Source: Salinadaptatus halalkaliphilus (GTDB lineage Archaea > Halobacteriota > Halobacteria > Halobacteriales > Natrialbaceae). Taken from it: a stretch of 32,226 nucleotides of DNA. The notes under the pieces are model-generated. The model was given only the letters and a program-made list of their open reading frames with translations. It had not been told where the DNA came from and did no database searches. Made by a program: the position numbers and the translations under genes. Positions 22,926-31,925 of this stretch are shown here, in pieces (the first letter of the stretch is position 1; each line of letters opens with the position of its first letter). Location: NCBI RefSeq assembly GCF_006543045.1, contig NZ_RBZW01000010.1, positions 1 through 32,226 on the forward strand, given 5' to 3'.

Positions 22926-23077
22926 ATTATCATCTCCGTTGAGGCGCGTCTCACGGGCCAGATGTTCGACAACTGTACTCCGAGTGCACGAGGGACGATT
23001 CGAACGCCCGTCTCGGTCGTGGCACAACCGCGTGTTTCCGAACTCCACCACTCGCGCATCCTCAAATCCGAACTGGG

Positions 23078-24607
23078 CTAGGTCGGGTCGAACGCCTCGA
23101 TCTCATCGATGATCTGTTTCGGATTCTCGGCGTGTTCGATGAACGAGAGGACGTTCTCCGACCATCCCGAGATGTTGTAGACGTTTTCGTAGCCTTCTGG
23201 CGTCACCAGGTCGCCGTAGGCCGCGAGATCGACGAGATACAGCGCGGTGTCCGCAGACACCTCGTCTCGATACGCATCGAACGCGTCTTTGACCGTCTGG
23301 GAATCGCGGGCCGTGAACGGCGTGTTGTCCCAGATCTGCATATCGGTGAAGACGACGATGCGTTCAACAGCATCCCCTCGGTCGTGGAGGTGCTTGATCG
23401 CCCTCCAGCCGTTCGTCGAGTTTCCGACATCCTCGTCGATCGCCAACACCGCCGCTTGGCGCTGCAGGACTGGCGTGTCGACGTGCATCGGAACGGTCTG
23501 GAAGTCGTCGCCGAACCCGCCGACGTCAGCACCCTGGTCGGCCAGGATCGCACCGAACAATGCACCGATCTCCTTCAGTCGGAGCGTGCTGTTCGCGGAC
23601 AGCGGCTGATCCATCGATCCCGACAGGTCGACCGCGACAAAGGTATCGCCGAATCCGCCAGGCACCGTCTCGACCGCGACATCAATTGCGTCTTCGAGCC
23701 ACTGCTCGACCGTCGGTGCCTGGACATCCGCGTCTTGCAGCGCGGTGTAGGCCTGGTAGTACCGGAACGGGTACAGCGGCGCGTGGCGGATGGCCTCCAG
23801 GTCGAGGTGATCCACGACGGTGTCCTCCGGAACGCCGGCTTCGAGCATATTCCGGAGGTTCCGGATCGACGCGAAGATGGGCAGCGTGTACTCGTCGTCC
23901 TCGATGAGCAGTTCCCAGGCGGCTTGGGTGTTGCCGCGCTCGGAGATAACCGTCTCCCACGTGTTCGGCGCCGGCAACGGGTCGACGTCGGGATAGTCGT
24001 CGAGGCCACCACGCATGAACCGCTCGAAGAGCGCTTCCTGCTCGGCGTCGATGGGCGTGGGGTGGACGCGGTTGAAGACGTCGTGCAGCGTCACCTCGCG
24101 CTGCGACAGCTCGTACTTGCCCAGCGTGTAGGCGTCGGCCATCTCCACCAGCGCGTCCTCGATCCCGCGTCGAAGCGGCCACGGCGCAGTCCCGCCGAAC
24201 AGCTGATCGTGGACCGCGAGCGCGGTGGCCGTCTCGTCCATCCGCTGGATGATCGCCGGCGCCCATTCGCGGATGAGCGACTCGGGGGAGTCGTCCTTGA
24301 ATCGGTCGTCGTTGGCTGCCAGTACGAGTAGCACTTGTGGGATGTCCCGCAAGTAGAGCTCCTGGCGCGCATAGGCCGCGAGCTTCAGGACGAACTCCGG
24401 GTCCTCGTTTGCGGCGGCATCGAACTGGCGAACGACAGCAGCGAGCTGTTCGTCATCGGTCTCGTAGAACGAGCCCTCCAGCAGCTGGTTGATCGTGCGC
24501 TTGTACAGTGCGAGTCGGGGGTCGGCAGGCTCGAACGCTTCGCCACCCTCGTAGTTGGTGGTCCGCGTTGCCTCCGCGACCGTTTGCTTTGGCGTGTTGA
24601 ATTCCAT
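23078..24607 (-). CDS. Ro60-like RNA-binding protein (TROVE plus von Willebrand A domain)
   Basis: A 509-residue Ro60 (Rsr) homologue. Residues about 10-300 are the HEAT-like helical TROVE domain, which in known relatives forms a ring that holds Y RNAs on its surface and passes the ends of misfolded RNAs through its centre. Diagnostic pieces are YKRTINQLLEGSFYE, FVLKLAAYARQELYLRDIPQVLLVLAA and HAPLYPFRYYQAYTAL. The vWA domain follows with a complete MIDAS site: D327-x-S329-x-S331 in AVDLSGSMDQ, T398 and D422 in VVFTDM. The ATG at 24607 has GGTGAT just upstream, complementary to the 16S rRNA 3' end; the frame further upstream runs into tRNA-Arg and is not coding. It lies at the downstream end of a 14-tRNA array on the same strand and directly after two structured tRNA-like RNAs that are candidate Y RNAs. 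Family members act in RNA quality control and stress survival; mycobacteriophage Bxz1 is a known case of a Ro homologue next to a large tRNA set. Confidence 0.92.
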   Translation of the reverse strand: MEFNTPKQTVAEATRTTNYEGGEAFEPADPRLALYKRTINQLLEGSFYETDDEQLAAVVRQFDAAANEDPEFVLKLAAYARQELYLRDIPQVLLVLAANDDRFKDDSPESLIREWAPAIIQRMDETATALAVHDQLFGGTAPWPLRRGIEDALVEMADAYTLGKYELSQREVTLHDVFNRVHPTPIDAEQEALFERFMRGGLDDYPDVDPLPAPNTWETVISERGNTQAAWELLIEDDEYTLPIFASIRNLRNMLEAGVPEDTVVDHLDLEAIRHAPLYPFRYYQAYTALQDADVQAPTVEQWLEDAIDVAVETVPGGFGDTFVAVDLSGSMDQPLSANSTLRLKEIGALFGAILADQGADVGGFGDDFQTVPMHVDTPVLQRQAAVLAIDEDVGNSTNGWRAIKHLHDRGDAVERIVVFTDMQIWDNTPFTARDSQTVKDAFDAYRDEVSADTALYLVDLAAYGDLVTPEGYENVYNISGWSENVLSFIEHAENPKQIIDEIEAFDPT

Positions 24608-24721
24608 CCTATCACCCGGAGCCGCAACAGGCGACTCCGATCGTAGCTGCCCACAAGCTCTGTGAGCAGCGAGTCTCGGGAGAGAAACTTCCCGAACCAG
24701 CCTCGCATCGCTCGGCTGGAC

Positions 24722-24795
24722 GTTCCCGGCACGATTCGAACGTGCGACACCCGGCTTCGAAGGCCGGTGCTCTGTCCTGACTGAGCTACGGGAAC
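24722..24795 (-). tRNA. tRNA-Arg (anticodon UCG)
   Basis: A full cloverleaf of 74 nt: acceptor GTTCCCG/CGGGAAC, D-arm GCTCAGTCAGGACAGAGC, anticodon stem CCGGC/GCCGG with loop CTTCGAA (anticodon TCG, codon CGA) and T-arm GCACG-TTCGAAT-CGTGC. All stems pair fully. It is the array member nearest the Ro60-like gene. Confidence 0.92.
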
Positions 24796-24803
24796 ACGAG
24801 TGG

Positions 24804-24954
24804 CCGGACAATTTCTGGAGCGAACGACGGGATTCGAACCCGTAATGTGCCATCGACGTAGCGCTCCAGATCGACGGTCACTGGCGACACGACGACCGGA
24901 AAACTGTCGGAGCGGGACCGGTGTCGAGCGTCCTCTCGTACGCTCTTTGTCCGG
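24804..24954 (-). ncRNA. Structured tRNA-like RNA A, candidate Y RNA (YrlA-like)
   Basis: No anticodon arm can be drawn, yet the 3' part has a perfect T-arm (ACGGG-TTCGAAT-CCCGT) followed by an acceptor-like strand CGTTCGC that pairs with GCGTACG at the 5' side (6 of 7 pairs). This helix continues outward into GA/TC pairs and then, after an internal loop, an 8-bp terminal stem CCGGACAA/TTGTCCGG that closes the whole 151-nt RNA. A D-arm-like GGAC/GTCC hairpin follows the 5' strand. Where an anticodon arm should be, there is a long irregular arm (CGCTCC/GGAGCG, then CGGTC/GACCG). Bacterial YrlA RNAs combine a tRNA-like T/D module with a long closing stem that binds Ro60. The Ro60-like gene starts about 200 nt downstream on the same strand. 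That this is a Y RNA is inference. Confidence 0.5.
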
Positions 24955-24973
24955 GATGTTCTCGATGGGTTGT

Positions 24974-25169
24974 GCCACCGACAGGATTTGAACCTGCGAG
25001 TTCCTGGCGAAGCAACGCTCCGACTCGACGGTCGCCACGTGCGGTCGAGCAACTGGTGGTGCGACGGGCTATGACTCCCGTTGGTGTGCTTTGCGGGCGA
25101 AGAAACGCACCACCTCGTCGACCACACGCTTGGGGAACGCTGACCGTGACAGCGTCACGGATCCGTGGC
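24974..25169 (-). ncRNA. Structured tRNA-like RNA B, candidate Y RNA (YrlA-like)
   Basis: A second RNA with a perfect T-arm loop (GCAGG-TTCAAAT-CCTGT) and acceptor strand CGGTGGC, which pairs with GCCACGG about 195 nt upstream (6 of 7). No anticodon arm with T33 and good stems can be found. Instead, a very long hairpin fills the middle: CGTGTGGTCGA with TCGACCGCACG (11 bp, one G-U; plus-strand positions 25118-25128 and 25038-25048), an internal loop, then GGTGGTGCG with CGCACCACC (9 bp; 25106-25114 and 25055-25063). The 5' side also carries a 7-bp hairpin (25144-25160). A long stem interrupted by an internal loop is what Ro60 binds in Y RNAs. It lies next to RNA A and the Ro60-like gene. Exact ends are uncertain, and an intron-bearing or decayed tRNA is the alternative. 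Confidence 0.45.
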
Positions 25170-25221
25170 TGCCCGCTATGTCAGACACGGAAAAACGCTG
25201 TCAGGGCCAGCCTCCCCGACT

Positions 25222-25296
25222 GCTCCCGAGGGGAATCGAACCCCTGGCCTCCAGTTTGAAAAACTGGCGTCTCTCGCCAACGGAGACTCCGGGAGC
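25222..25296 (-). tRNA. tRNA-Glu (anticodon UUC)
   Basis: A 75-nt cloverleaf: acceptor GCTCCCG/CGGGAGC, anticodon stem CCAGT/ACTGG with loop TTTTCAA (anticodon TTC, codon GAA) and T-arm AGGGG-TTCGATT-CCCCT. All stems are perfect. Confidence 0.92.
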
Positions 25297-25338
25297 GCTG
25301 GAGAGTAAATCAAGCACCGAGGTGTGGGCACGCACGGG

Positions 25339-25743
25339 TCACTGCAGCCGTTCGAAGCCCTCGAGTTGCCCGTGCGTGAACGTTACTTGATACGTGACGA
25401 GTGTCTCGAGACCCTCGAAGGAGTGTTTGAGCTTGAAGCGGCCGTGGTAGTCGTCTCGTTCGATCCAGCCGTCGTGGACTCGGTTCCGACTGCCGGCCAT
25501 GTAGCGAAAATCGTCCTCGTCGACGTCGTCACGGCTCGCGTATGGCCGGTCTTCCGGCGGGACCGCTTCGGTGTGCCACTCCTCTTCGAGGAGCCGACCG
25601 TCCGCCGTAATCCGAAATGTGGTCATGGTCGGTCGATCGATGCCTTTCGTCTGCCAGTCGACATCCTCGGCAGGAGTAATCCCTTCGGGGTACTCTGGCA
25701 GGTGGACGTCGTCGTAGAGTTCGACTGTATCGAATAGTCCCAT
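25339..25743 (-). CDS. Phage-like hypothetical protein inside the tRNA array
   Basis: A 134-residue acidic protein from the ATG at 25743. The frame extends upstream only into tRNA-Met sequence, so this start is right. The N terminus MGLFDTVELYDDVHLPEYPEGITPAEDVDWQTKGIDRPTMTTFRITADGRLLEEEW resembles, as I remember, small proteins of unknown function in tailed phages and prophages. No catalytic motif is seen. It lies between tRNA-Glu(UUC) and tRNA-Met on the same strand, as small orphan genes do within phage tRNA arrays, and supports a viral origin of the array. Confidence 0.7.
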   Translation of the reverse strand: MGLFDTVELYDDVHLPEYPEGITPAEDVDWQTKGIDRPTMTTFRITADGRLLEEEWHTEAVPPEDRPYASRDDVDEDDFRYMAGSRNRVHDGWIERDDYHGRFKLKHSFEGLETLVTYQVTFTHGQLEGFERLQ

Positions 25744-25756
25744 TGTTGTCCTCCAT

Positions 25757-25826
25757 TGCGGGACCAGGAGTCGAACCTGGGCCTCGGGGATATGAGCCCC
25801 GTGGACTGCCATTATCCTATCCCGCA
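25757..25826 (-). tRNA. tRNA with anticodon CAU (Met, or Ile2 if modified)
   Basis: A compact 70-nt cloverleaf: acceptor TGCGGGA/TCCCGCA, anticodon stem CGGGG/CCCCG with loop CTCATAT (anticodon CAT) and T-arm CCAGG-TTCGACT-CCTGG. The first pair is U1-A72, unlike archaeal initiators (A1-U72), so it is an elongator Met or an AUA-reading Ile tRNA; the sequence alone does not decide. The variable loop has only 4 nt. Confidence 0.88.
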
Positions 25827-25930
25827 GCACACAATTCGGAACTCACTCATGGGCATCTCTCAGTTCTCCACAGCTGTCCGTCCCTCAGTCTCGTCGGCTG
25901 GAAGTGAGAGGTCTCGGACTGTTGGAGAAT

Positions 25931-26002
25931 GCTCCAGCCCGGATTCGAACCGGGGGCTCGGCCGTGAGAGGGCCGTGAGTTTGGCCGCTACTCCACTGGA
26001 GC
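25931..26002 (-). tRNA. tRNA-Glu (anticodon CUC)
   Basis: A 72-nt cloverleaf: acceptor GCTCCAG/CTGGAGC, anticodon stem CGGCC/GGCCG with loop CTCTCAC (anticodon CTC, codon GAG) and T-arm CCCGG-TTCGAAT-CCGGG. It is the second Glu isoacceptor in the array. Confidence 0.9.
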
Positions 26003-26037
26003 GGGTTGGCCTCGTCTGGAACGGGTCGTCGGCCAGT

Positions 26038-26169
26038 GGGACGGGCAGGATTCGAACCTGCGTGTTCTCGTTACAAGTGAGATGAAGGAACTCTCACCGT
26101 CGCACCGGGTCTCCGGTGAAAACTCGGTGAGTGTGTGTGTGTGTGAATGCCAGGCTCTTCCACCGTCCC
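26038..26169 (-). tRNA. tRNA-Thr (anticodon UGU) with a 61-nt insertion
   Basis: The acceptor is perfect (GGGACGG/CCGTCCC), as is the T-arm (GCAGG-TTCGAAT-CCTGC). The anticodon arm is TCTCA/CGAGA (one A-C mismatch) with loop CTTGTAA (anticodon TGT, codon ACA). The D-arm (GAAG...ATTC) is separated from the anticodon arm by about 61 extra nt (26083-26143) that fold on themselves: CTCACCG/CGGTGAG around a CACCGG/CCGGTG hairpin, preceded by a CA dinucleotide run. Canonical archaeal introns sit one base after the anticodon; this one would lie between the D- and anticodon arms. It may be a non-canonical intron, a permanent extra arm, or decay. Confidence 0.7.
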
Positions 26170-26173
26170 GCAG

Positions 26174-26246
26174 TCTCCCCGGCACGACTCGAACGTGCGT
26201 CTCCTCCTCTACAGGGAGGTATCGTAGCCGCTAGACCACAGGGAGA
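26174..26246 (-). tRNA. tRNA-Tyr (anticodon GUA)
   Basis: A 73-nt cloverleaf: acceptor TCTCCCT/GGGGAGA (last pair U-G), anticodon stem CCTCC/GGAGG with loop CTGTAGA (anticodon GTA) and T-arm GCACG-TTCGAGT-CGTGC. It starts only 4 nt from tRNA-Thr, so both must be cut from one precursor. Confidence 0.88.
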
Positions 26247-26250
26247 AAAT

Positions 26251-26332
26251 GTCGCCGCGAGGATTCGAACCTCGGAAGGACCTACGCCAGCGGGTCTGAG
26301 CCGCTTCTCGTTGACCACTTGAGTACGGCGAC
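26251..26332 (-). tRNA. tRNA-Leu (anticodon CAG)
   Basis: An 82-nt class II cloverleaf: acceptor GTCGCCG/CGGCGAC, anticodon stem AGCGG/CCGCT with loop CTCAGAC (anticodon CAG, codon CUG), a long variable arm, and T-arm CGAGG-TTCGAAT-CCTCG. The base after the acceptor is A, the Leu discriminator. Confidence 0.9.
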
Positions 26333-26375
26333 GTAACGGTGAAGCGAGAATTGTCTCCCGGCACGATGGCCGGAT

Positions 26376-26456
26376 GCCGCCACCAGGATTCGAACCTGGG
26401 AAGGACTAACCACACGGGTCTCGACCGTGTCCGTTCGACCACTCTGGCATGGCGGC
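26376..26456 (-). tRNA. tRNA-Leu (anticodon GAG), unusual C33
   Basis: An 81-nt class II cloverleaf: acceptor GCCGCCA/TGGCGGC, anticodon stem CACGG/CCGTG, long variable arm and T-arm CCAGG-TTCGAAT-CCTGG. The loop reads TCGAGAC: the central triplet is GAG (codon CUC), but position 33, almost always U, is C. A73 and similarity to the Leu-CAG neighbour favour Leu over a shifted reading as Ser(CGA). Confidence 0.75.
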
Positions 26457-26518
26457 GCAATTCGAGAATCGCCGGCGACTCTGCGAATCACTTCGGCACG
26501 CAGCGGCGGGAGAGCGAT

Positions 26519-27906
26519 GTCAACTGCCCCGCGCACGGTGGCGCGGGGCTTGTCAGTGAACTCGGCCTCTGCCGACCATAGTTAGTCGGACGAGACAAAG
26601 CCCCGGTTCGGCGTCACCGTTCCTGACTTCAGGGCGAGTTGACTGTCGCCCGTCCGCCGCGACGACTGTAGGCCGCGACGGACATACCGCCACCCAATAT
26701 TCTTCGCTCCAACATAGTCCGCGTTCGCTGTCGTATCACACCTCTCGCACTCAAACTCTGCCTGTGTTACGCGGTTCCCTTTACTCGTGTGTCCACATTC
26801 GGGACACCGACGACTCGTATTCTCCGGATCGACGTACTCTACGCAGATGCCTTCCGTCTCGGACTTGTACTCCACGAGATCAACGAGTTGCCGATGCGCC
26901 CACTGGTGGAACTCTTTGACCGGCGGCACACGGTCTCTGATGTGGGTCAGATTCTCGAATGCAATGTATTCACAGTCGTGATTCAACGCTTCTTCGATAA
27001 TGTCGTTGGCCACGCGATGCAGGACATCCCGAACGTAGCGGGACTCTCTGCCGCTCATCTGCTGGATGGTGCGGTGTGCGGACTGCGTACCGGTCTGTTG
27101 GAGACTGCTTCGAATCCGCTCGAACTCCCGGTGTCGATGTCTGACTTCTCTGCCGGACGCGAAGTACGCCGTTGAGGTTGTGGCGATGTTGACGATGCCG
27201 AGGTCGACGCCGAGAACTGTCCTGTCCTCGTCGTCGCCCTGTTGTTCGACCTGTTTCTCGGGCTTCGGTTTGCGAAAGCCGAGATGCAGGTAGTAGTCGC
27301 CATCACGCCGAGAAAGCGTGGATTCGGTGAGCTCCCAGTCCTCATCGTTGAGGTACTGGTGTTGGTAGCCGTCTTCGTCGTCCGGCAACGCGAGATCGCA
27401 CCGGATGCGGTCGTCAACCGTTGTAAGTGAGACTGTTTCGTCGTCGAACAGCGTCATCGTCCGGGTGTCGTATTTCACCGTGGTGGCGGTGAACTCCGGA
27501 CACGAGGTTTTGTATTTCTCGTCTAGTTCTTTGATTTCTTCGACGCCGGAGAGTGCGGCTGCGGCTTGGTGGGTGGCGAGGATTGCGTGTTGGCTCCCGA
27601 GACGCGTCTCCTCCAGCACCTCGTCGTAGGCGAGGTCTTGGAGGTATGTCTTCCGCGTTTCACCCGTTTGCCATCCGATCCGACTGCTGATGTTGCAGGC
27701 ATCTTGCCACTCGTTGATGGTGGCGTCAAGCAGATCTTGTTGCTCGGTGGTGAGGATGGGGCGGGTGATTGCGGTGCGTCGCAGGTAGTCGTCCGCCACG
27801 GTTTTCAATAGATATATGAGGTACTTAGTAATCGGTGGTTTGTGGCAGTGGGTGTTGGTTTCCTCCCCGCCCACCGGTGGGCGGGGAACCCGCCTTGCTA
27901 TCTAAT
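26519..27906 (-). mobile_element. TnpB element inserted in the T-loop of tRNA-Ser(GGA)
   Basis: The element is 1388 bp, and its borders are fixed by the reconstructed tRNA. The left end follows TTCAA, the presumed transposon-adjacent target, and contains a perfect 22-bp palindrome with arms CCCCGCCCACC/GGTGGGCGGGG (about 27866-27887). The right end carries GACAAG, a GCCCCGCGC..GCGCGGGGC hairpin (about 26525-26550) and GTTGAC, ending at 26519. No target duplication exists, as expected for IS200/IS605-type transposition. The only gene is tnpB. Confidence 0.8.
26582..27799 (-). CDS. tnpB: TnpB, RNA-guided DNA nuclease (element in tRNA-Ser)
   Basis: A complete TnpB of 405 residues from the GTG at 27799 (reading MADDYLRRTAITRPIL); the open frame upstream passes through left-end palindrome sequence and is unlikely to be coding. 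RuvC-I is GVDLGIVNIA (Asp about 199), RuvC-II AFENLT, the zinc ribbon CPECG...CERC and RuvC-III ADYVGAKN. All catalytic residues are there. It is more distant from the other two intact TnpBs here (first RuvC motif GVDLG rather than GVD.NVD), although the right-end hairpin design is shared. By analogy its omega RNA would carry a guide that reads from 26518 into the 3' end of tRNA-Ser(GGA), and so would match the empty target site next to TTCAA. No tnpA is present. Confidence 0.9.
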   Translation of the reverse strand: MADDYLRRTAITRPILTTEQQDLLDATINEWQDACNISSRIGWQTGETRKTYLQDLAYDEVLEETRLGSQHAILATHQAAAALSGVEEIKELDEKYKTSCPEFTATTVKYDTRTMTLFDDETVSLTTVDDRIRCDLALPDDEDGYQHQYLNDEDWELTESTLSRRDGDYYLHLGFRKPKPEKQVEQQGDDEDRTVLGVDLGIVNIATTSTAYFASGREVRHRHREFERIRSSLQQTGTQSAHRTIQQMSGRESRYVRDVLHRVANDIIEEALNHDCEYIAFENLTHIRDRVPPVKEFHQWAHRQLVDLVEYKSETEGICVEYVDPENTSRRCPECGHTSKGNRVTQAEFECERCDTTANADYVGAKNIGWRYVRRGLQSSRRTGDSQLALKSGTVTPNRGFVSSD

Positions 27907-27980
27907 TTGAACACTCGTGTCCTTGCGGACGCTGCGGTTCCAACGCAGTCCCTTGACCAAGCTAGGGAAACCCCGCCAAC

Positions 27981-28061
27981 GGTGAGATGGAGAGTCGAAC
28001 TCCGAAGCCTCGCGGCTCTCGGTTTCACACCGAGCGCGGTCGTCTATCCGCATGTCTCACC
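27981..28061 (-). tRNA. tRNA-Ser (anticodon UGA), unusual G33
   Basis: An 81-nt class II cloverleaf: acceptor GGTGAGA/TCTCACC, anticodon stem CTCGG/CCGAG, variable arm GCCGCGAGGC and T-arm CGGAG-TTCGACT-CTCCA (the pair furthest from the loop is mismatched). The anticodon loop is TGTGAAA: the central TGA fits Ser (codon UCA), but position 33 is G instead of U. The discriminator is G, as in Ser tRNAs. Confidence 0.75.
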
Positions 28062-28203
28062 ATCTCCGTCGGAACTTGCTCCGACAAGCCCGCCTCGCGT
28101 TTCTCACCGGGACACCGGAAGACGCGCATTACTCAGCTTCTGCCCCTCACTACCGAGGCGAATGTGCTCATCAGCATCCAGTCACAGCAGGGATGGATGG
28201 TGG

Positions 28204-28344
28204 TCACCTCGTTCCGTGGAAGTATGCGCCGTCCTCGGTGACGCAGATTTCCACGCTTCCAATCGTGTCGATAGACGTTGTTTCACCGATCGGGACGTGA
28301 CGGAACGCTTCCTCCTCGCAGGCAGGGCAGACATTCGTTGTCAT
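28204..28344 (-). CDS. Very small CxxC protein inside the tRNA array
   Basis: A 46-residue frame starting at the ATG at 28344, three nt after tRNA-Ser(GCU): MTTNVCPACEEEAFRHVPIGETTS and so on to DGAYFHGTR. One CPAC knuckle and a later single Cys (VEICV) and His may make a small zinc site. I do not recognise a family. Such mini-genes are common between phage tRNAs. Coding is supported by the acidic composition and the start position only. The 140 nt from 28062 to 28203 hold nothing I can name. Confidence 0.45.
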   Translation of the reverse strand: MTTNVCPACEEEAFRHVPIGETTSIDTIGSVEICVTEDGAYFHGTR

Positions 28345-28347
28345 GAC

Positions 28348-28433
28348 GCCGCGACCCGGATTCGAACCGGGAGACCGGTAGCAGACGGTCACGGCATAGC
28401 AGGCCGCTGGGTTCCCCAATACCCAGTCGCGGC
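28348..28433 (-). tRNA. tRNA-Ser (anticodon GCU)
   Basis: An 86-nt class II cloverleaf: acceptor GCCGCGA/TCGCGGC, D-arm CTGGGT...ACCCAG, anticodon stem GCGGC/GCCGT with loop CTGCTAT (anticodon GCT, codon AGC), variable arm GACCG...CGGTC and T-arm CCCGG-TTCGAAT-CCGGG. The discriminator is G. Confidence 0.9.
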
Positions 28434-28438
28434 ACAGT

Positions 28439-28510
28439 GAGCCGACGCGGATTCGAACCTCGGTCCTGTGCGCCCAAGGCACAGATCGTCGTCCGCTGGA
28501 CCATCGGCTC
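28439..28510 (-). tRNA. tRNA-Pro (anticodon UGG)
   Basis: A 72-nt cloverleaf: acceptor GAGCCGA/TCGGCTC, anticodon stem TGTGC/GCACA with loop CTTGGGC (anticodon TGG, codon CCA) and T-arm CGAGG-TTCGAAT-CCGCG with one A-G mismatch in the stem. Only 5 nt separate it from tRNA-Ser(GCU). Confidence 0.85.
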
Positions 28511-28760
28511 ACTGGACTGCCGAGCGTTCGGCAGTTGATTATCTATCTGTACGACTTTCCAACTGCGCAACCGCGACCGAGTAGTCGTGGTTGCGCGTCT
28601 CATCGCGGGGGCGTACTTCGGGTGTTCCCGGGAATACCACACCGGCTTATGTAGGTTGCAGACCCTGCTGGGCCCAGCATCGTCGGAACGATCCAGCTGA
28701 TCGCACCAACGGGCTGCCTACCTCGATGGGTATCCCCACGTGGTTTATCCACGCGTCCAC
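28511..28760. other. Gene-free stretch with strong hairpins between tRNAs
   Basis: No gene or tRNA is recognisable. An 8-bp hairpin ACTGCCGA/TCGGCAGT lies at 28516-28535. A 13-bp helix follows at 28565-28596: GCGCAACCGCGAC pairs with GTCGTGGTTGCGC around CGAGTA, complete (one G-U) if read as plus-strand RNA and with one A-C mismatch if read on the minus strand. Palindromes GCTGGGCCCAGC and CCACGTGG follow. A processed spacer or an unknown small RNA are both possible. Confidence 0.4.
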
Positions 28761-28833
28761 GCCGACGCCGGGATTCGAACCCGGATCACGGCCGTGACAG
28801 GACCGTATGCTCGCCGGATTACACCACGTCGGC
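28761..28833 (-). tRNA. tRNA-Asp (anticodon GUC)
   Basis: A 73-nt cloverleaf: acceptor GCCGACG/CGTCGGC, anticodon stem CGGTC/GGCCG (one U-G) with loop CTGTCAC (anticodon GTC, codon GAC) and T-arm CCGGG-TTCGAAT-CCCGG. Confidence 0.92.
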
Positions 28834-28841
28834 ATGCAGTC

Positions 28842-28914
28842 GCCCCGGCCGGAATCGAACCGGCGACCTCCGGATTCAAAGTCCGGCGTCCCTCGCCAGC
28901 GGAGACTCCGGGGC
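28842..28914 (-). tRNA. tRNA-Gln (anticodon UUG)
   Basis: A 73-nt cloverleaf: acceptor GCCCCGG/CCGGGGC, anticodon stem CCGGA/TCCGG with loop CTTTGAA (anticodon TTG, codon CAA) and T-arm GCCGG-TTCGATT-CCGGC. It is the first tRNA of the array in the direction of transcription. Confidence 0.92.
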
Positions 28915-29627
28915 TAGGCGTAGCCGCAGCTATCGCTGCGGGGCTGTTGGCTAACGACTTCCGTGCGCTCAGCGCGGACGGAGCCCGTTCTCCCCTGTAT
29001 CGGAACGAACGGAAACCAATCAGCCGCGAGCCTGGCACCCCACACTCGCTTCACGCTGTGTACTGAGCGAGTACTGGGCAAAGGCAGGCGGCAATCCCGT
29101 GTTCCCCGATCCCTGACGGGTAGTCCGTATGGGGGCCGAGTTATGCGGGTGAGAGTGTCCGGCCGTCGCCGGATTGCGTCGAACTCTCGTATTCGAAGCC
29201 GACGTGGATCCGGCGGTTTGCGCCCGGTCTCTTCGCACGCTGATCTTGTAGGCACTCGCCGAACACAGGACCCGCGGCTAAGCGAGAACGAGCACGCCGC
29301 GGGGTGAGGCGAGTGATAATCATCGTGTTGAACGCTCCCAGTTTGAGGGGTGTATCGGACGTCAACCTGGATTATCGTGGCAATTGTATTAAAATTAGTC
29401 AGGGTGTGGGTAACACACCCATAGTGGTGGACAGTCGAATGTCATACTCAGCTTTTTGAGCGCCGAACATACTCCCCACCTGCGTTGTCTCTCGGCTTAA
29501 GGGGTGATCCAATACGGAGTGTTTCCGGGAGGCCGCACAGAAACTATAGCCACCCTACCAGCAACGGCGCAAATTAGGTTCGGCGTCTACTGTAAACGGC
29601 GGGATTCTCTCCTCGCAGAAAGATAGT
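28915..29627. other. Gene-free leader of the tRNA array
   Basis: No reading frame here looks like protein and no further tRNA is found. A perfect hairpin CCGCAGC/GCTGCGG (28924-28941) stands just before tRNA-Gln. A TATA-like box on the minus strand lies at 29387-29394, so the region 28915-29365 would be a long leader RNA. Further right, GGGTGTG/CACACCC (29402-29420) is an inverted repeat. The leader could hide another structured RNA that I cannot identify. Confidence 0.4.
29387..29394 (-). promoter_or_regulatory. Candidate promoter of the tRNA/Ro60 array
   Basis: The minus strand reads TTTTAATA, preceded by CTAA, in an otherwise GC-rich region. It is the most AT-rich spot upstream of the first tRNA. 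Transcription would begin near 29365 and run through the tRNAs toward the Ro60-like gene. Internal promoters are not excluded. Confidence 0.35.
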
Positions 29628-31094: not shown

Positions 31095-31925
31095 TCAGGA
31101 CTCCGTTGGCTCCAGCGTGGCTGGCTCGACGTTGATCCGGAGGCGATACGTGCTGTCGGTCGACCCGGTGTCGGGCCGCGTCGGGTCCAGCAGCGAGTAG
31201 CCACTCGTGAACGACGCGACGAGTTCCTCGCGGGCGGGGAGGTCGATGCCGAGCTGGTCGGCGAGGTAGACGATTCGCTTGGTCGCCGCCCCGTTGTCGA
31301 GGCGCTCGAGGTACTCGCCGACAGTGTCCCAGTCGCAACCACGGTCGTCGGCAGTACGCATCGCGGTTGCGAGTTCCCGAACGCCACCGCAGAACTCGGG
31401 ATGGTCCGCACAGTCGACCAGCGTCTTCTCCAGGTCGCTGACCTGAACGGTCGTACCCTCGATCGATGTCGGCTCAAGGCCGAAGAATTTCTGCTCGGTG
31501 ATCGTCGTGACGCGGTACGGGACACCGTGGATCTCTCGGCTTTGCGCTCGGGTCGGCGTGACGACGTACACCGTCCGGGGGACCTGTTCGGTCAGCCCGT
31601 GGTGGCTGAGGGCGCTGTAGTAGCCGATGTACATCGGCTCGGCGACGTGGGCGGCGATGAGGTACTCGTGGGTGGTGTACACGGCCTTCTCGCCGGCAGT
31701 GAGTGGAATGATGAGATACGTGCCCGGGAAGAGACGGTCGAGCCAGCCCTTCTCGGTGAGCCGGGAGGCAATCTCTCGGGCGGTGTTCGGGGGGACCTCC
31801 AGCGTCGTCTCGATGTCGTCGATGGAGATGATTTGGTGACCCGCGCCAGCGAGTCGTGCAAGGAGTCGACTTTCTCGAGTCGAGAGGCCCTGGCGTATAT
31901 TTTGTGATTGTTCTATAGTACTCAT
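31095..31925 (-). CDS. AbiEi-family antitoxin-like protein, without visible toxin partner
   Basis: A 276-residue protein of the AbiEi type (antitoxin of type IV systems). An N-terminal winged helix (LSTRESRLLARLAGAGHQIISIDDIETTLEVPPNTAREIASRLTEKGWLDRLFPGTYLIIP, about 14-75) is followed by the conserved core HEYLIAAHVAEPMYIGYYSALSHHGLTEQVPRTVYVVTP and SDLEKTLVDCADHPEFCGGVRELATAM. AbiEi represses its own operon and opposes AbiEii, a nucleotidyltransferase toxin normally encoded directly downstream. Here the downstream space ends after 60 nt at a convergent gene, so no AbiEii is present. The ATG at 31925 is certain from the family start, and a long palindrome lies upstream as expected for AbiEi autorepression. 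Confidence 0.85.
   Translation of the reverse strand: MSTIEQSQNIRQGLSTRESRLLARLAGAGHQIISIDDIETTLEVPPNTAREIASRLTEKGWLDRLFPGTYLIIPLTAGEKAVYTTHEYLIAAHVAEPMYIGYYSALSHHGLTEQVPRTVYVVTPTRAQSREIHGVPYRVTTITEQKFFGLEPTSIEGTTVQVSDLEKTLVDCADHPEFCGGVRELATAMRTADDRGCDWDTVGEYLERLDNGAATKRIVYLADQLGIDLPAREELVASFTSGYSLLDPTRPDTGSTDSTYRLRINVEPATLEPTES

What the first reader, a model, noticed from the sequence alone, without database searches (positions are those of the whole stretch)
24974..25169. RNA B: second tRNA-like RNA with a 20-bp interrupted hairpin in place of the anticodon arm
T-arm GCAGG-TTCAAAT-CCTGT and an acceptor-like pair (6 of 7) enclose a hairpin of 11 bp plus 9 bp split by an internal loop (25038-25128). 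Y RNAs use a long stem with an internal loop for Ro60 binding. Two such RNAs side by side, both upstream of the Ro60-like gene, make chance less likely.
Basis: partly seen in the sequence, partly recalled or inferred. Interest (0 to 1): 0.7.

Follow-up and report, generated by a model that had tools for sequence, protein, structure and literature searches.

The report
Tandem tRNA-like Y RNAs in archaea
Upstream of a Ro60 gene on a mobile element of salt-loving archaea lie several small tRNA-mimicking RNAs that look like the Y RNAs known from animals and bacteria, which would extend Ro60-Y RNA partnerships to the third domain of life.

Summary
All share a lower stem, an asymmetric internal loop (5' UCGA, 3' RRUUUUC), an upper stem, UUNCUUC and a T-arm or its remnant.

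The re-drawn helices are 98-99% paired with compensatory changes. A covariance model finds this RNA in 44 of 391 Halobacteria genomes, exactly the 44 with Ro60.

Relatives carry the whole tRNA module: T-arm, looped-off acceptor, D-arm, sometimes an anticodon-like arm. One matches Rfam YrlA end to end (40.6 bits; cut-off 69). A non-permuted form, a tRNA with the same stem between D- and anticodon arms, lies at 26037-26169, in halovirus HGTV-1 (annotated tRNA-Asp with intron) and in ANME-1 archaea.

They are most likely archaeal Y RNAs of Ro60, one topology matching bacterial YrlA. Expression and Ro60 binding are untested.

The parts
25037..25129 (-). Lower stem GCGUGUGGUCG/CGACCGCACGU, loop 5' ACGA / 3' AGUUGCU, upper stem GGUGGUGCG/CGCACCACC, UUUCUUC, pseudo-T-arm ACGGG-AGUCAUAG-CCCGU
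   Evidence: descriptor; 65.6 bits, E 1e-13 at 25040-25126; this copy is in the model's training set; 98.6% cells paired, 17 double-sided changes in 22 loci
24887..25040 (-). Y2: second RNA. Lower stem ACGUGGCGACCG/CGGUCGUCGUGU, UCGA / AGUUUUC, upper stem GUCGGAGCG/CGCUCCGAC, UUGCUUC, T-arm, acceptor-like hairpin, GC hairpin
   Evidence: 59 bits, E 4.7e-12 at 24891-25036, not in the training set; 99.1% cells paired, compensatory changes
24981..24997 (-). T-arm of Y2, GCAGG-UUCAAAU-CCUGU
   Evidence: invariant or wobble-only in 22 loci
   Evidence: invariant in 22 loci; relatives have 6-8 bp with different sequences
24926..24945 (-). GC hairpin of Y2 (GAGCGU/ACGCUC) in the place of the D-arm
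   Evidence: two pairs with compensatory changes (AU to CG in 9 and UA to CG in 10 of 22)
24799..24882 (-). Y3: third RNA. AGUGACCG/CGGCCACU (one A.C mismatch here), UCGA / AAUUGUC, UCUGGAGCG/CGCUCCAGA, T-arm ACGGG-UUCGAAU-CCCGU
   Evidence: 68.4 bits, E 2e-14; this copy not in the training set
26037..26169 (-). non-permuted tRNA-Y chimera: acceptor GGGACGG/CCGUCCC + A, D-arm, closed Y stem (CACUCACCG-AGUUUUC-ACCGG-AGAC-CCGGU-GCGA-CGGUGAGAG), UUCCUUC, anticodon-like arm (loop CUUGUAA), T-arm
   Evidence: Rfam tRNA 35 bits on its 3' part
23078..24607 (-). Ro60 (TROVE + vWA) gene, 509 aa
   Evidence: PF05731 E 1.1e-20; PDB TROVE entries E 1.6e-32; top 13 fold matches all Ro60/Rsr/TROVE
24717..24796 (-). 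tRNA-Arg(ucg) between Y3 and Ro60
25221..25296 (-). tRNA-Glu(uuc) upstream of Y1; start of the tRNA array that runs to about 28915

Best explanation
The locus makes a set of archaeal Y RNAs: Y1, Y2 and Y3 in tandem upstream of Ro60, plus a tRNA-Y chimera at 26037-26169. Each has a two-part stem whose internal loop (UCGA opposite RRUUUUC) is the likely Ro60 site, joined to a tRNA-like module that mimics tRNA but does not decode. In the full form the RNA is a tRNA circle opened between the D-arm and the anticodon arm, with the Y stem attached there. If the acceptor is looped off and the stem open, the result is the YrlA-like permuted form; if the acceptor is open and the stem looped off, the result is the chimera. 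Proposed working, inferred: Ro60 binds the stem and is stabilised and gated by it, while the tRNA-like end tethers a tRNA-binding enzyme. In bacteria that partner is PNPase. This host has no RNase PH-family protein but has an RNase R-type enzyme, so an RNB exonuclease or tRNA-repair enzymes are more likely partners. On these elements, which carry large tRNA arrays, the RNP would survey or repair tRNAs. Shown by sequence: structure, covariation, linkage and co-occurrence with Ro60, resemblance to YrlA. Inferred: transcription, Ro60 binding, partner, function.
For: Covariation: on 21 diverse RNAs, 96% of cells paired versus 35.6-54.6% when slid, 19 of 24 pairs with changes on both sides, score 0.540 versus 0.144 shuffled. 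On 22 loci aligned by homology, Y1 98.6% and Y2 99.1% paired. Conserved motifs in 79 distinct cores: C 78/79, A 79/79, RRUUUUC, UUNCUUC. Co-occurrence: model R1 hits below E 1e-4 in exactly the 44 TROVE-positive genomes of 391, beside TROVE on the same strand; 27 of 27 after removing the 17 training genomes (log10 p about -41). The RNA persists beside Ro60s of 48-53% identity and, with a related motif, in ANME-1. YrlA model hit of 40.6 bits, E 4.5e-8, full length 1-114 with stem, T-arm, acceptor and D-arm. Ro60 is genuine. No RNase PH family, RNB present.
Against: No RNA-seq, northern or binding data. YrlA hits stay below Rfam's cut-off of 69 bits, and no window RNA reaches it. The three window RNAs lack a D-arm. 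The effector and function are guesses. Y1 and Y2 stems overlap by 4 nt as drawn, so true ends are unknown. The sequence sets partly descend from closely related mobile elements, and A1 was drawn from descriptor hits that required pairing.
Confidence: 0.87

Rival explanations
1. One reading: one RNA of about 196 nt with a tRNA-like acceptor stem (25169-25163 with 24980-24974) enclosing the hairpin in place of the anticodon arm.
For: Six of seven bases pair in this sequence, and the minimum-energy fold of the excised stretch pairs its ends.
Against: The helix is not conserved: pairs broken in 12 and 20 of 22 loci, no covariation. The sequence 5' of 25129 diverges. The 3' half of the conserved Y2 stem lies outside the proposed RNA.
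Confidence: 0.02
2. Intron-containing or decaying tRNAs: the stems are introns to be spliced out, or the units are tRNA pseudogenes of the array.
For: ARAGORN and GenBank annotate some relatives as tRNAs with introns, HGTV-1 among them. The chimeras have intact acceptor, T- and anticodon-like arms. A published survey lists tRNA pseudogenes and introns in such clusters (PMC6333295).
Against: Y1-Y3 lack an open acceptor stem and an anticodon arm. The stem has one asymmetric 4x7 internal loop, not two 3-nt bulges 4 bp apart. The stem is under strong constraint, which an intron or a decaying gene would not be expected to show. In chimeras with the same acceptor the would-be anticodon reads UGU, UUU or UCU, so no decoding identity is kept. 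Decay does not give covariation or a perfect link to Ro60.
Confidence: 0.05
3. The structures are a cis-acting leader of the Ro60 mRNA that Ro60 binds to control its own expression, rather than free Y RNAs.
For: All units lie on the Ro60 strand directly upstream, in HGTV-1 just before the start codon, so co-transcription is likely.
Against: A canonical tRNA-Arg sits between Y3 and Ro60 and must be excised by tRNA end-processing enzymes, cutting the leader off. Copies also lie deep in the tRNA array. One to five copies per locus suggest free RNAs.
Confidence: 0.06

Closest known systems
YrlA, bacterial Y RNA (Rfam RF02553; Salmonella rsr-yrlBA-rtcBA)
   Same: Stem from both RNA ends broken by an asymmetric internal loop; then T-arm, looped-off acceptor, U8-A9 and D-arm in permuted order; next to a Ro60 gene. 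L083 Y3 aligns over the whole model, E 4.5e-8.
   Different: Below Rfam's cut-off (40.6 versus 69 bits). Different internal-loop sequence; many copies per locus; some relatives keep an anticodon-like arm; window copies are reduced (no D-arm). Sits in a tRNA array of a mobile element, not an rtc operon.
Vertebrate Y RNAs (hY1-hY5)
   Same: Stem of two helices around a conserved bulged C (PMC4030889). From memory, 5' CGA facing a U-containing strand, close to UCGA / RRUUUUC here.
   Different: No tRNA-like module, and no match to Rfam's Y_RNA model in the window.
Intron-containing archaeal tRNA genes, e.g. HGTV-1 'tRNA-Asp + intron'
   Same: The non-permuted chimera has the acceptor, D- and T-arms of a tRNA.
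   Different: The insert is the Y stem with UCGA-type and RRUUUUC-type loops; no bulge-helix-bulge seen; anticodon drifts.
Archaeal tRNA gene clusters with a TROVE gene (PMC6333295)
   Same: The same genomic setting: TROVE in 20 of 29 clusters, mostly haloarchaeal.
   Different: That paper reports the gene and tRNA pseudogenes but no Y RNA in the passages read.

Membership tests
Y RNA (Ro60-associated small RNA, general) | stem of two helices with a conserved internal loop or bulged C | tested here: met
   covarying stem, UCGA with C 78/79 and A 79/79
Y RNA (Ro60-associated small RNA, general) | genetic association with a Ro60/TROVE gene | tested here: met
   44 of 44 TROVE genomes, 0 of 347 others
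Y RNA (Ro60-associated small RNA, general) | physical binding by Ro60 | not testable with these tools
   needs pull-down or gel shift
Y RNA (Ro60-associated small RNA, general) | expressed as a discrete small RNA | not testable with these tools
   no transcript data
YrlA (Rfam RF02553) | score at or above the curated cut-off of 69 bits | tested here: not met
   best relative 40.6 bits; window RNAs not found
YrlA (Rfam RF02553) | permuted tRNA module: T-arm, looped-off acceptor, D-arm | tested here: inconclusive
   met in relatives (L083, L049, L080); in the window Y2 has T-arm and acceptor hairpin but no D-arm, Y3 has only the T-arm
intron-containing tRNA | open acceptor stem conserved across relatives | tested here: not met
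   for RNA B; met for the separate chimera at 26037-26169
intron-containing tRNA | bulge-helix-bulge at exon-intron borders | tested here: not met
   only a single 4x7 internal loop in the conserved stem; by inspection, no dedicated program run
intron-containing tRNA | constant anticodon for a given tRNA body | tested here: not met
   chimeras with acceptor GGGACGG carry UGU, UUU or UCU; Y1-Y3 have no anticodon arm

The most novel reading that the evidence does not exclude
Archaea have a Y RNA system in which one tRNA-Y chimera exists in two circularly permuted topologies side by side: an open-acceptor tRNA form, with tRNA-like ends and discriminator A, and a closed-acceptor form matching bacterial YrlA. 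This would suggest that tRNA-mimicking Y RNAs arose from a real tRNA that gained a Ro60-binding stem between D- and anticodon arms and was then permuted, and that viruses and plasmids spread the system.
Probability: 0.5. Interest if true: 0.9.

Novelty: new variant of a known kind. Interest (0 to 1): 0.8.

Why it matters
Y RNAs are described from animals and bacteria; no archaeal one was found in the searched literature. Finding them in haloarchaea, a halovirus and ANME-1 would put Ro60-Y RNA pairs in all three domains. The permuted and non-permuted forms in one array make the origin of tRNA mimicry by Y RNAs testable. Public annotation currently labels such RNAs as intron-containing tRNAs or pseudogenes, or misses them. 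The host lacks PNPase and exosome-type (RNase PH family) proteins, so the effector that bacterial Y RNAs tether must be something else, which is a concrete question for experiments in haloarchaea.

Tried and rejected
Rfam on the whole window found only tRNAs, and permissive Rfam on the region gave only weak matches for these RNAs (YrlA 19.8 bits spanning Y3 and tRNA-Arg is chance). The Ro60 search of viral contigs found nothing. Single-sequence folding of RNA A alone is no better than shuffles (z -0.27), because its boundaries are wrong. Reading the B3 module as a tRNA 3' half with an anticodon arm failed: no 5-bp/7-nt arm in Y2. The first descriptor scan without motif scores gave many chance stems in tRNA-rich DNA; motif scoring and then a covariance model fixed this. 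R1 does not find the HGTV-1 or ANME-1 RNAs significantly; these were found by descriptor and by eye, so they rest on weaker statistics. The AlphaFold model is mediocre (mean pLDDT 62.6) and used only for fold assignment. Key reviews on bacterial Y RNAs were not held, so novelty is judged from a partial library. L130 (YrlA hit 33 bits near TROVE) is probably a bacterial contig in a MAG and was not used.

Full report
**What was claimed.**

**Setting.** The window is part of a haloarchaeal genome (G000 contig 5). ARAGORN finds 12 tRNAs, all on the minus strand at 22984-28915, most of them in one array. The gene at 24607-23078 (minus) encodes a 509-aa protein with TROVE and vWA domains. It matches solved TROVE proteins over its whole length (E 1.6e-32), and the top 13 fold matches are all Ro60, Rsr or TROVE (the model itself is mediocre). 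Copies 96-98% identical lie on plasmids of Halorussus, Halosimplex, Haloplanus, Natrinema and Halobaculum, a 74% identical one on a Haloarcula plasmid, and a 45% identical one in halovirus HGTV-1. Tandem tRNAs, orc1/cdc6 and a type B DNA polymerase gene recur beside it.

**Re-parsing the RNAs.** Aligning the region across relatives showed that the sequence 5' of 25129 diverges, while everything from 25129 to about 24887 is conserved. A search for the 3' module found that it recurs: relatives have up to five such units upstream of Ro60. Each unit has a lower stem, a 4-nt 5' loop, an upper stem of about 9 bp, the motif UUNCUUC, an apical part, the upper 3' strand, a 7-nt 3' loop and the lower 3' strand. 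In the window these are Y1 (25129-25037), Y2 (25040-24887) and Y3 (24882-24799).

**Test of the two readings.** Y1 has 98.6% paired with 17 double-sided changes. Y2 has 99.1% paired with 28. The slid controls of Y1 and Y2 fall to 15-53%. The acceptor-like 3' strand CGGUGG pairs with CCAUCG just downstream, as in a circularly permuted tRNA.

**Family features.** Among 79 distinct cores the 5' loop is UCGA in 56, with C in 78 and A in all. The 3' loop is RRUUUUC-like and the motif after the upper stem is UUNCUUC-like. Helix positions use up to four Watson-Crick pair types, for example UA 24, GC 16, CG 14 and AU 11 at the second upper pair. On 21 diverse compact members, 19 of 24 pairs change on both sides, and the covariation score is 0.540 versus 0.144 for shuffles. 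These 21 were found by a descriptor that requires pairing, so the homology-based test above is the stricter one.

**Link to Ro60.** A covariance model (R1) searched in 391 Halobacteria genomes gives hits with E below 1e-4 in 44 genomes. TROVE is found in 44 of the same 391. The two lists are identical, and the hits lie upstream of TROVE on the same strand. Without the 17 genomes that contributed to the model, 27 of 27 remain (log10 p about -41). In the window Y3 scores 68.4 bits and Y2 59.0 bits (neither copy was in the training set), and Y1 65.6 bits (in the training set).

**tRNA mimicry.** Of 116 motif-bearing hits, 77 carry a canonical T-loop, 16 of them also a D-arm, and 28 a conserved pseudo-T-arm (AGUCAUAG loop, as in window Y1). 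The fullest relatives run stem, T-arm, acceptor helix closed by a loop, U-A, D-arm (GUGUAACCUGGUAGCAC), stem. Rfam's YrlA model aligns to one of them over all 114 positions (40.6 bits, E 4.5e-8) and to another at 25.9 bits. Both are below the curated cut-off of 69, so they are not filed as YrlA. Acceptor helices differ in sequence but pair (CGGUGGA/UCCACCG, GAGCGG/CCGCUC, GGGCGGA/UCCGCCC). Several keep an anticodon-like arm between the stem and the T-arm (UUCGC-CUGUGGA-GCGAG), so the Y stem is attached between D- and anticodon arms.

**A second topology.** At 26169-26037 the window has a tRNA with an open 7-bp acceptor stem (GGGACGG/CCGUCCC, discriminator A), D-arm, T-arm and an anticodon-like arm, plus the same Y stem, here closed by a short loop, between the D- and anticodon arms. 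The same layout recurs in about two dozen loci. It includes HGTV-1's annotated 'tRNA-Asp + intron' (70440-70571), the divergent loci L075 and L089, and ANME-1/Methanophagales and Methanoxibalbensis MAGs. The two forms are circular permutations of one molecule. In chimeras with the same acceptor the would-be anticodon reads UGU, UUU or UCU, which argues against a decoding tRNA. HGTV-1 also has a simple Y stem just before its Ro60 start codon (read by eye), and an RtcB gene nearby, which recalls the Salmonella rsr-yrlBA-rtcBA operon (PMC7790460).

**How it may work.** In bacteria the basal stem of YrlA binds Rsr and the tRNA-like domain tethers PNPase (PMC8394870). In animals a bulged C in the stem is the main Ro60 site (PMC4030889). 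The archaeal UCGA / RRUUUUC loop is the obvious candidate site (inferred). The host genome has no RNase PH-family protein (exosome core or PNPase) but has an RNB (RNase R-type) protein, so the tethered partner must differ. RNase R-type decay or tRNA repair is my best guess, at roughly even odds. That these elements carry tRNA arrays fits a role in tRNA surveillance or in replacing and repairing tRNAs during conflict (inference).

**What is known.** A 2019 survey noted TROVE in 20 of 29 archaeal tRNA clusters and counted tRNA pseudogenes and introns, without Y RNAs in the passages read (PMC6333295). No held paper joins Y RNA and haloarchaea. The library is partial, so I call this a new variant of a known kind rather than claim absolute priority.

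**Limits.** There are no expression or binding data. RNA ends are unknown. The HGTV-1 and ANME-1 members are below significance with R1 and rest on architecture, not on model scores. The vertebrate sequence comparison is from memory.

Noticed in passing
window 26037-26169 (-): Non-permuted tRNA-Y chimera with intact acceptor, D-, anticodon-like and T-arms and the Y stem between D- and anticodon arms; Rfam sees only part of it as a tRNA (35 bits).
   Followed up: yes
L091 10441-10572 (HGTV-1, KC292026 70440-70571): GenBank 'tRNA-Asp + intron' of halovirus HGTV-1 has the same chimera layout and is probably a misannotated Ro60-associated RNA; a further possible Y stem lies just upstream of it.
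   Followed up: partly
L126, L127, L128, L129: ANME-1/Methanophagales and Methanoxibalbensis MAGs carry TROVE with an adjacent tRNA-Y chimera and one or two simple or permuted Y-like RNAs with a variant loop (UGU / UUAUU).
   Followed up: partly
L051, L054, L062, L070, L082, L083 (tRNA-Arg before Ro60): The tRNA-Arg next to Ro60 carries a hairpin insertion of roughly 55 nt between D-arm and anticodon arm, flanked by a repeated CACCG, in several relatives; absent in the window. Not Y-like; may be an intron or a small mobile insertion.
   Followed up: no
L049 (-2075), L070 5540-5692, L068 (-2544): Further Y-like RNAs deep inside the tRNA array, without a T-arm but with a D-arm-like part.
   Followed up: no
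L060 (G268 contig 3): A second, truncated Ro60 copy (open frame 282 aa) without any Y RNA next to it.
   Followed up: no
L054: Most of Y1 is separated from its 3' end by an insertion of about 1.5 kb; Y2 and Y3 are intact.
   Followed up: no
Y1 apical part, window 25037-25129: Pseudo-T-arm loop AGUCAUAG is invariant in 22 aligned loci although it is not a T-loop; its role is unexplained.
   Followed up: no
window 31095-31925 (-): AbiEi-type antitoxin domain protein (PF09407).
   Followed up: no
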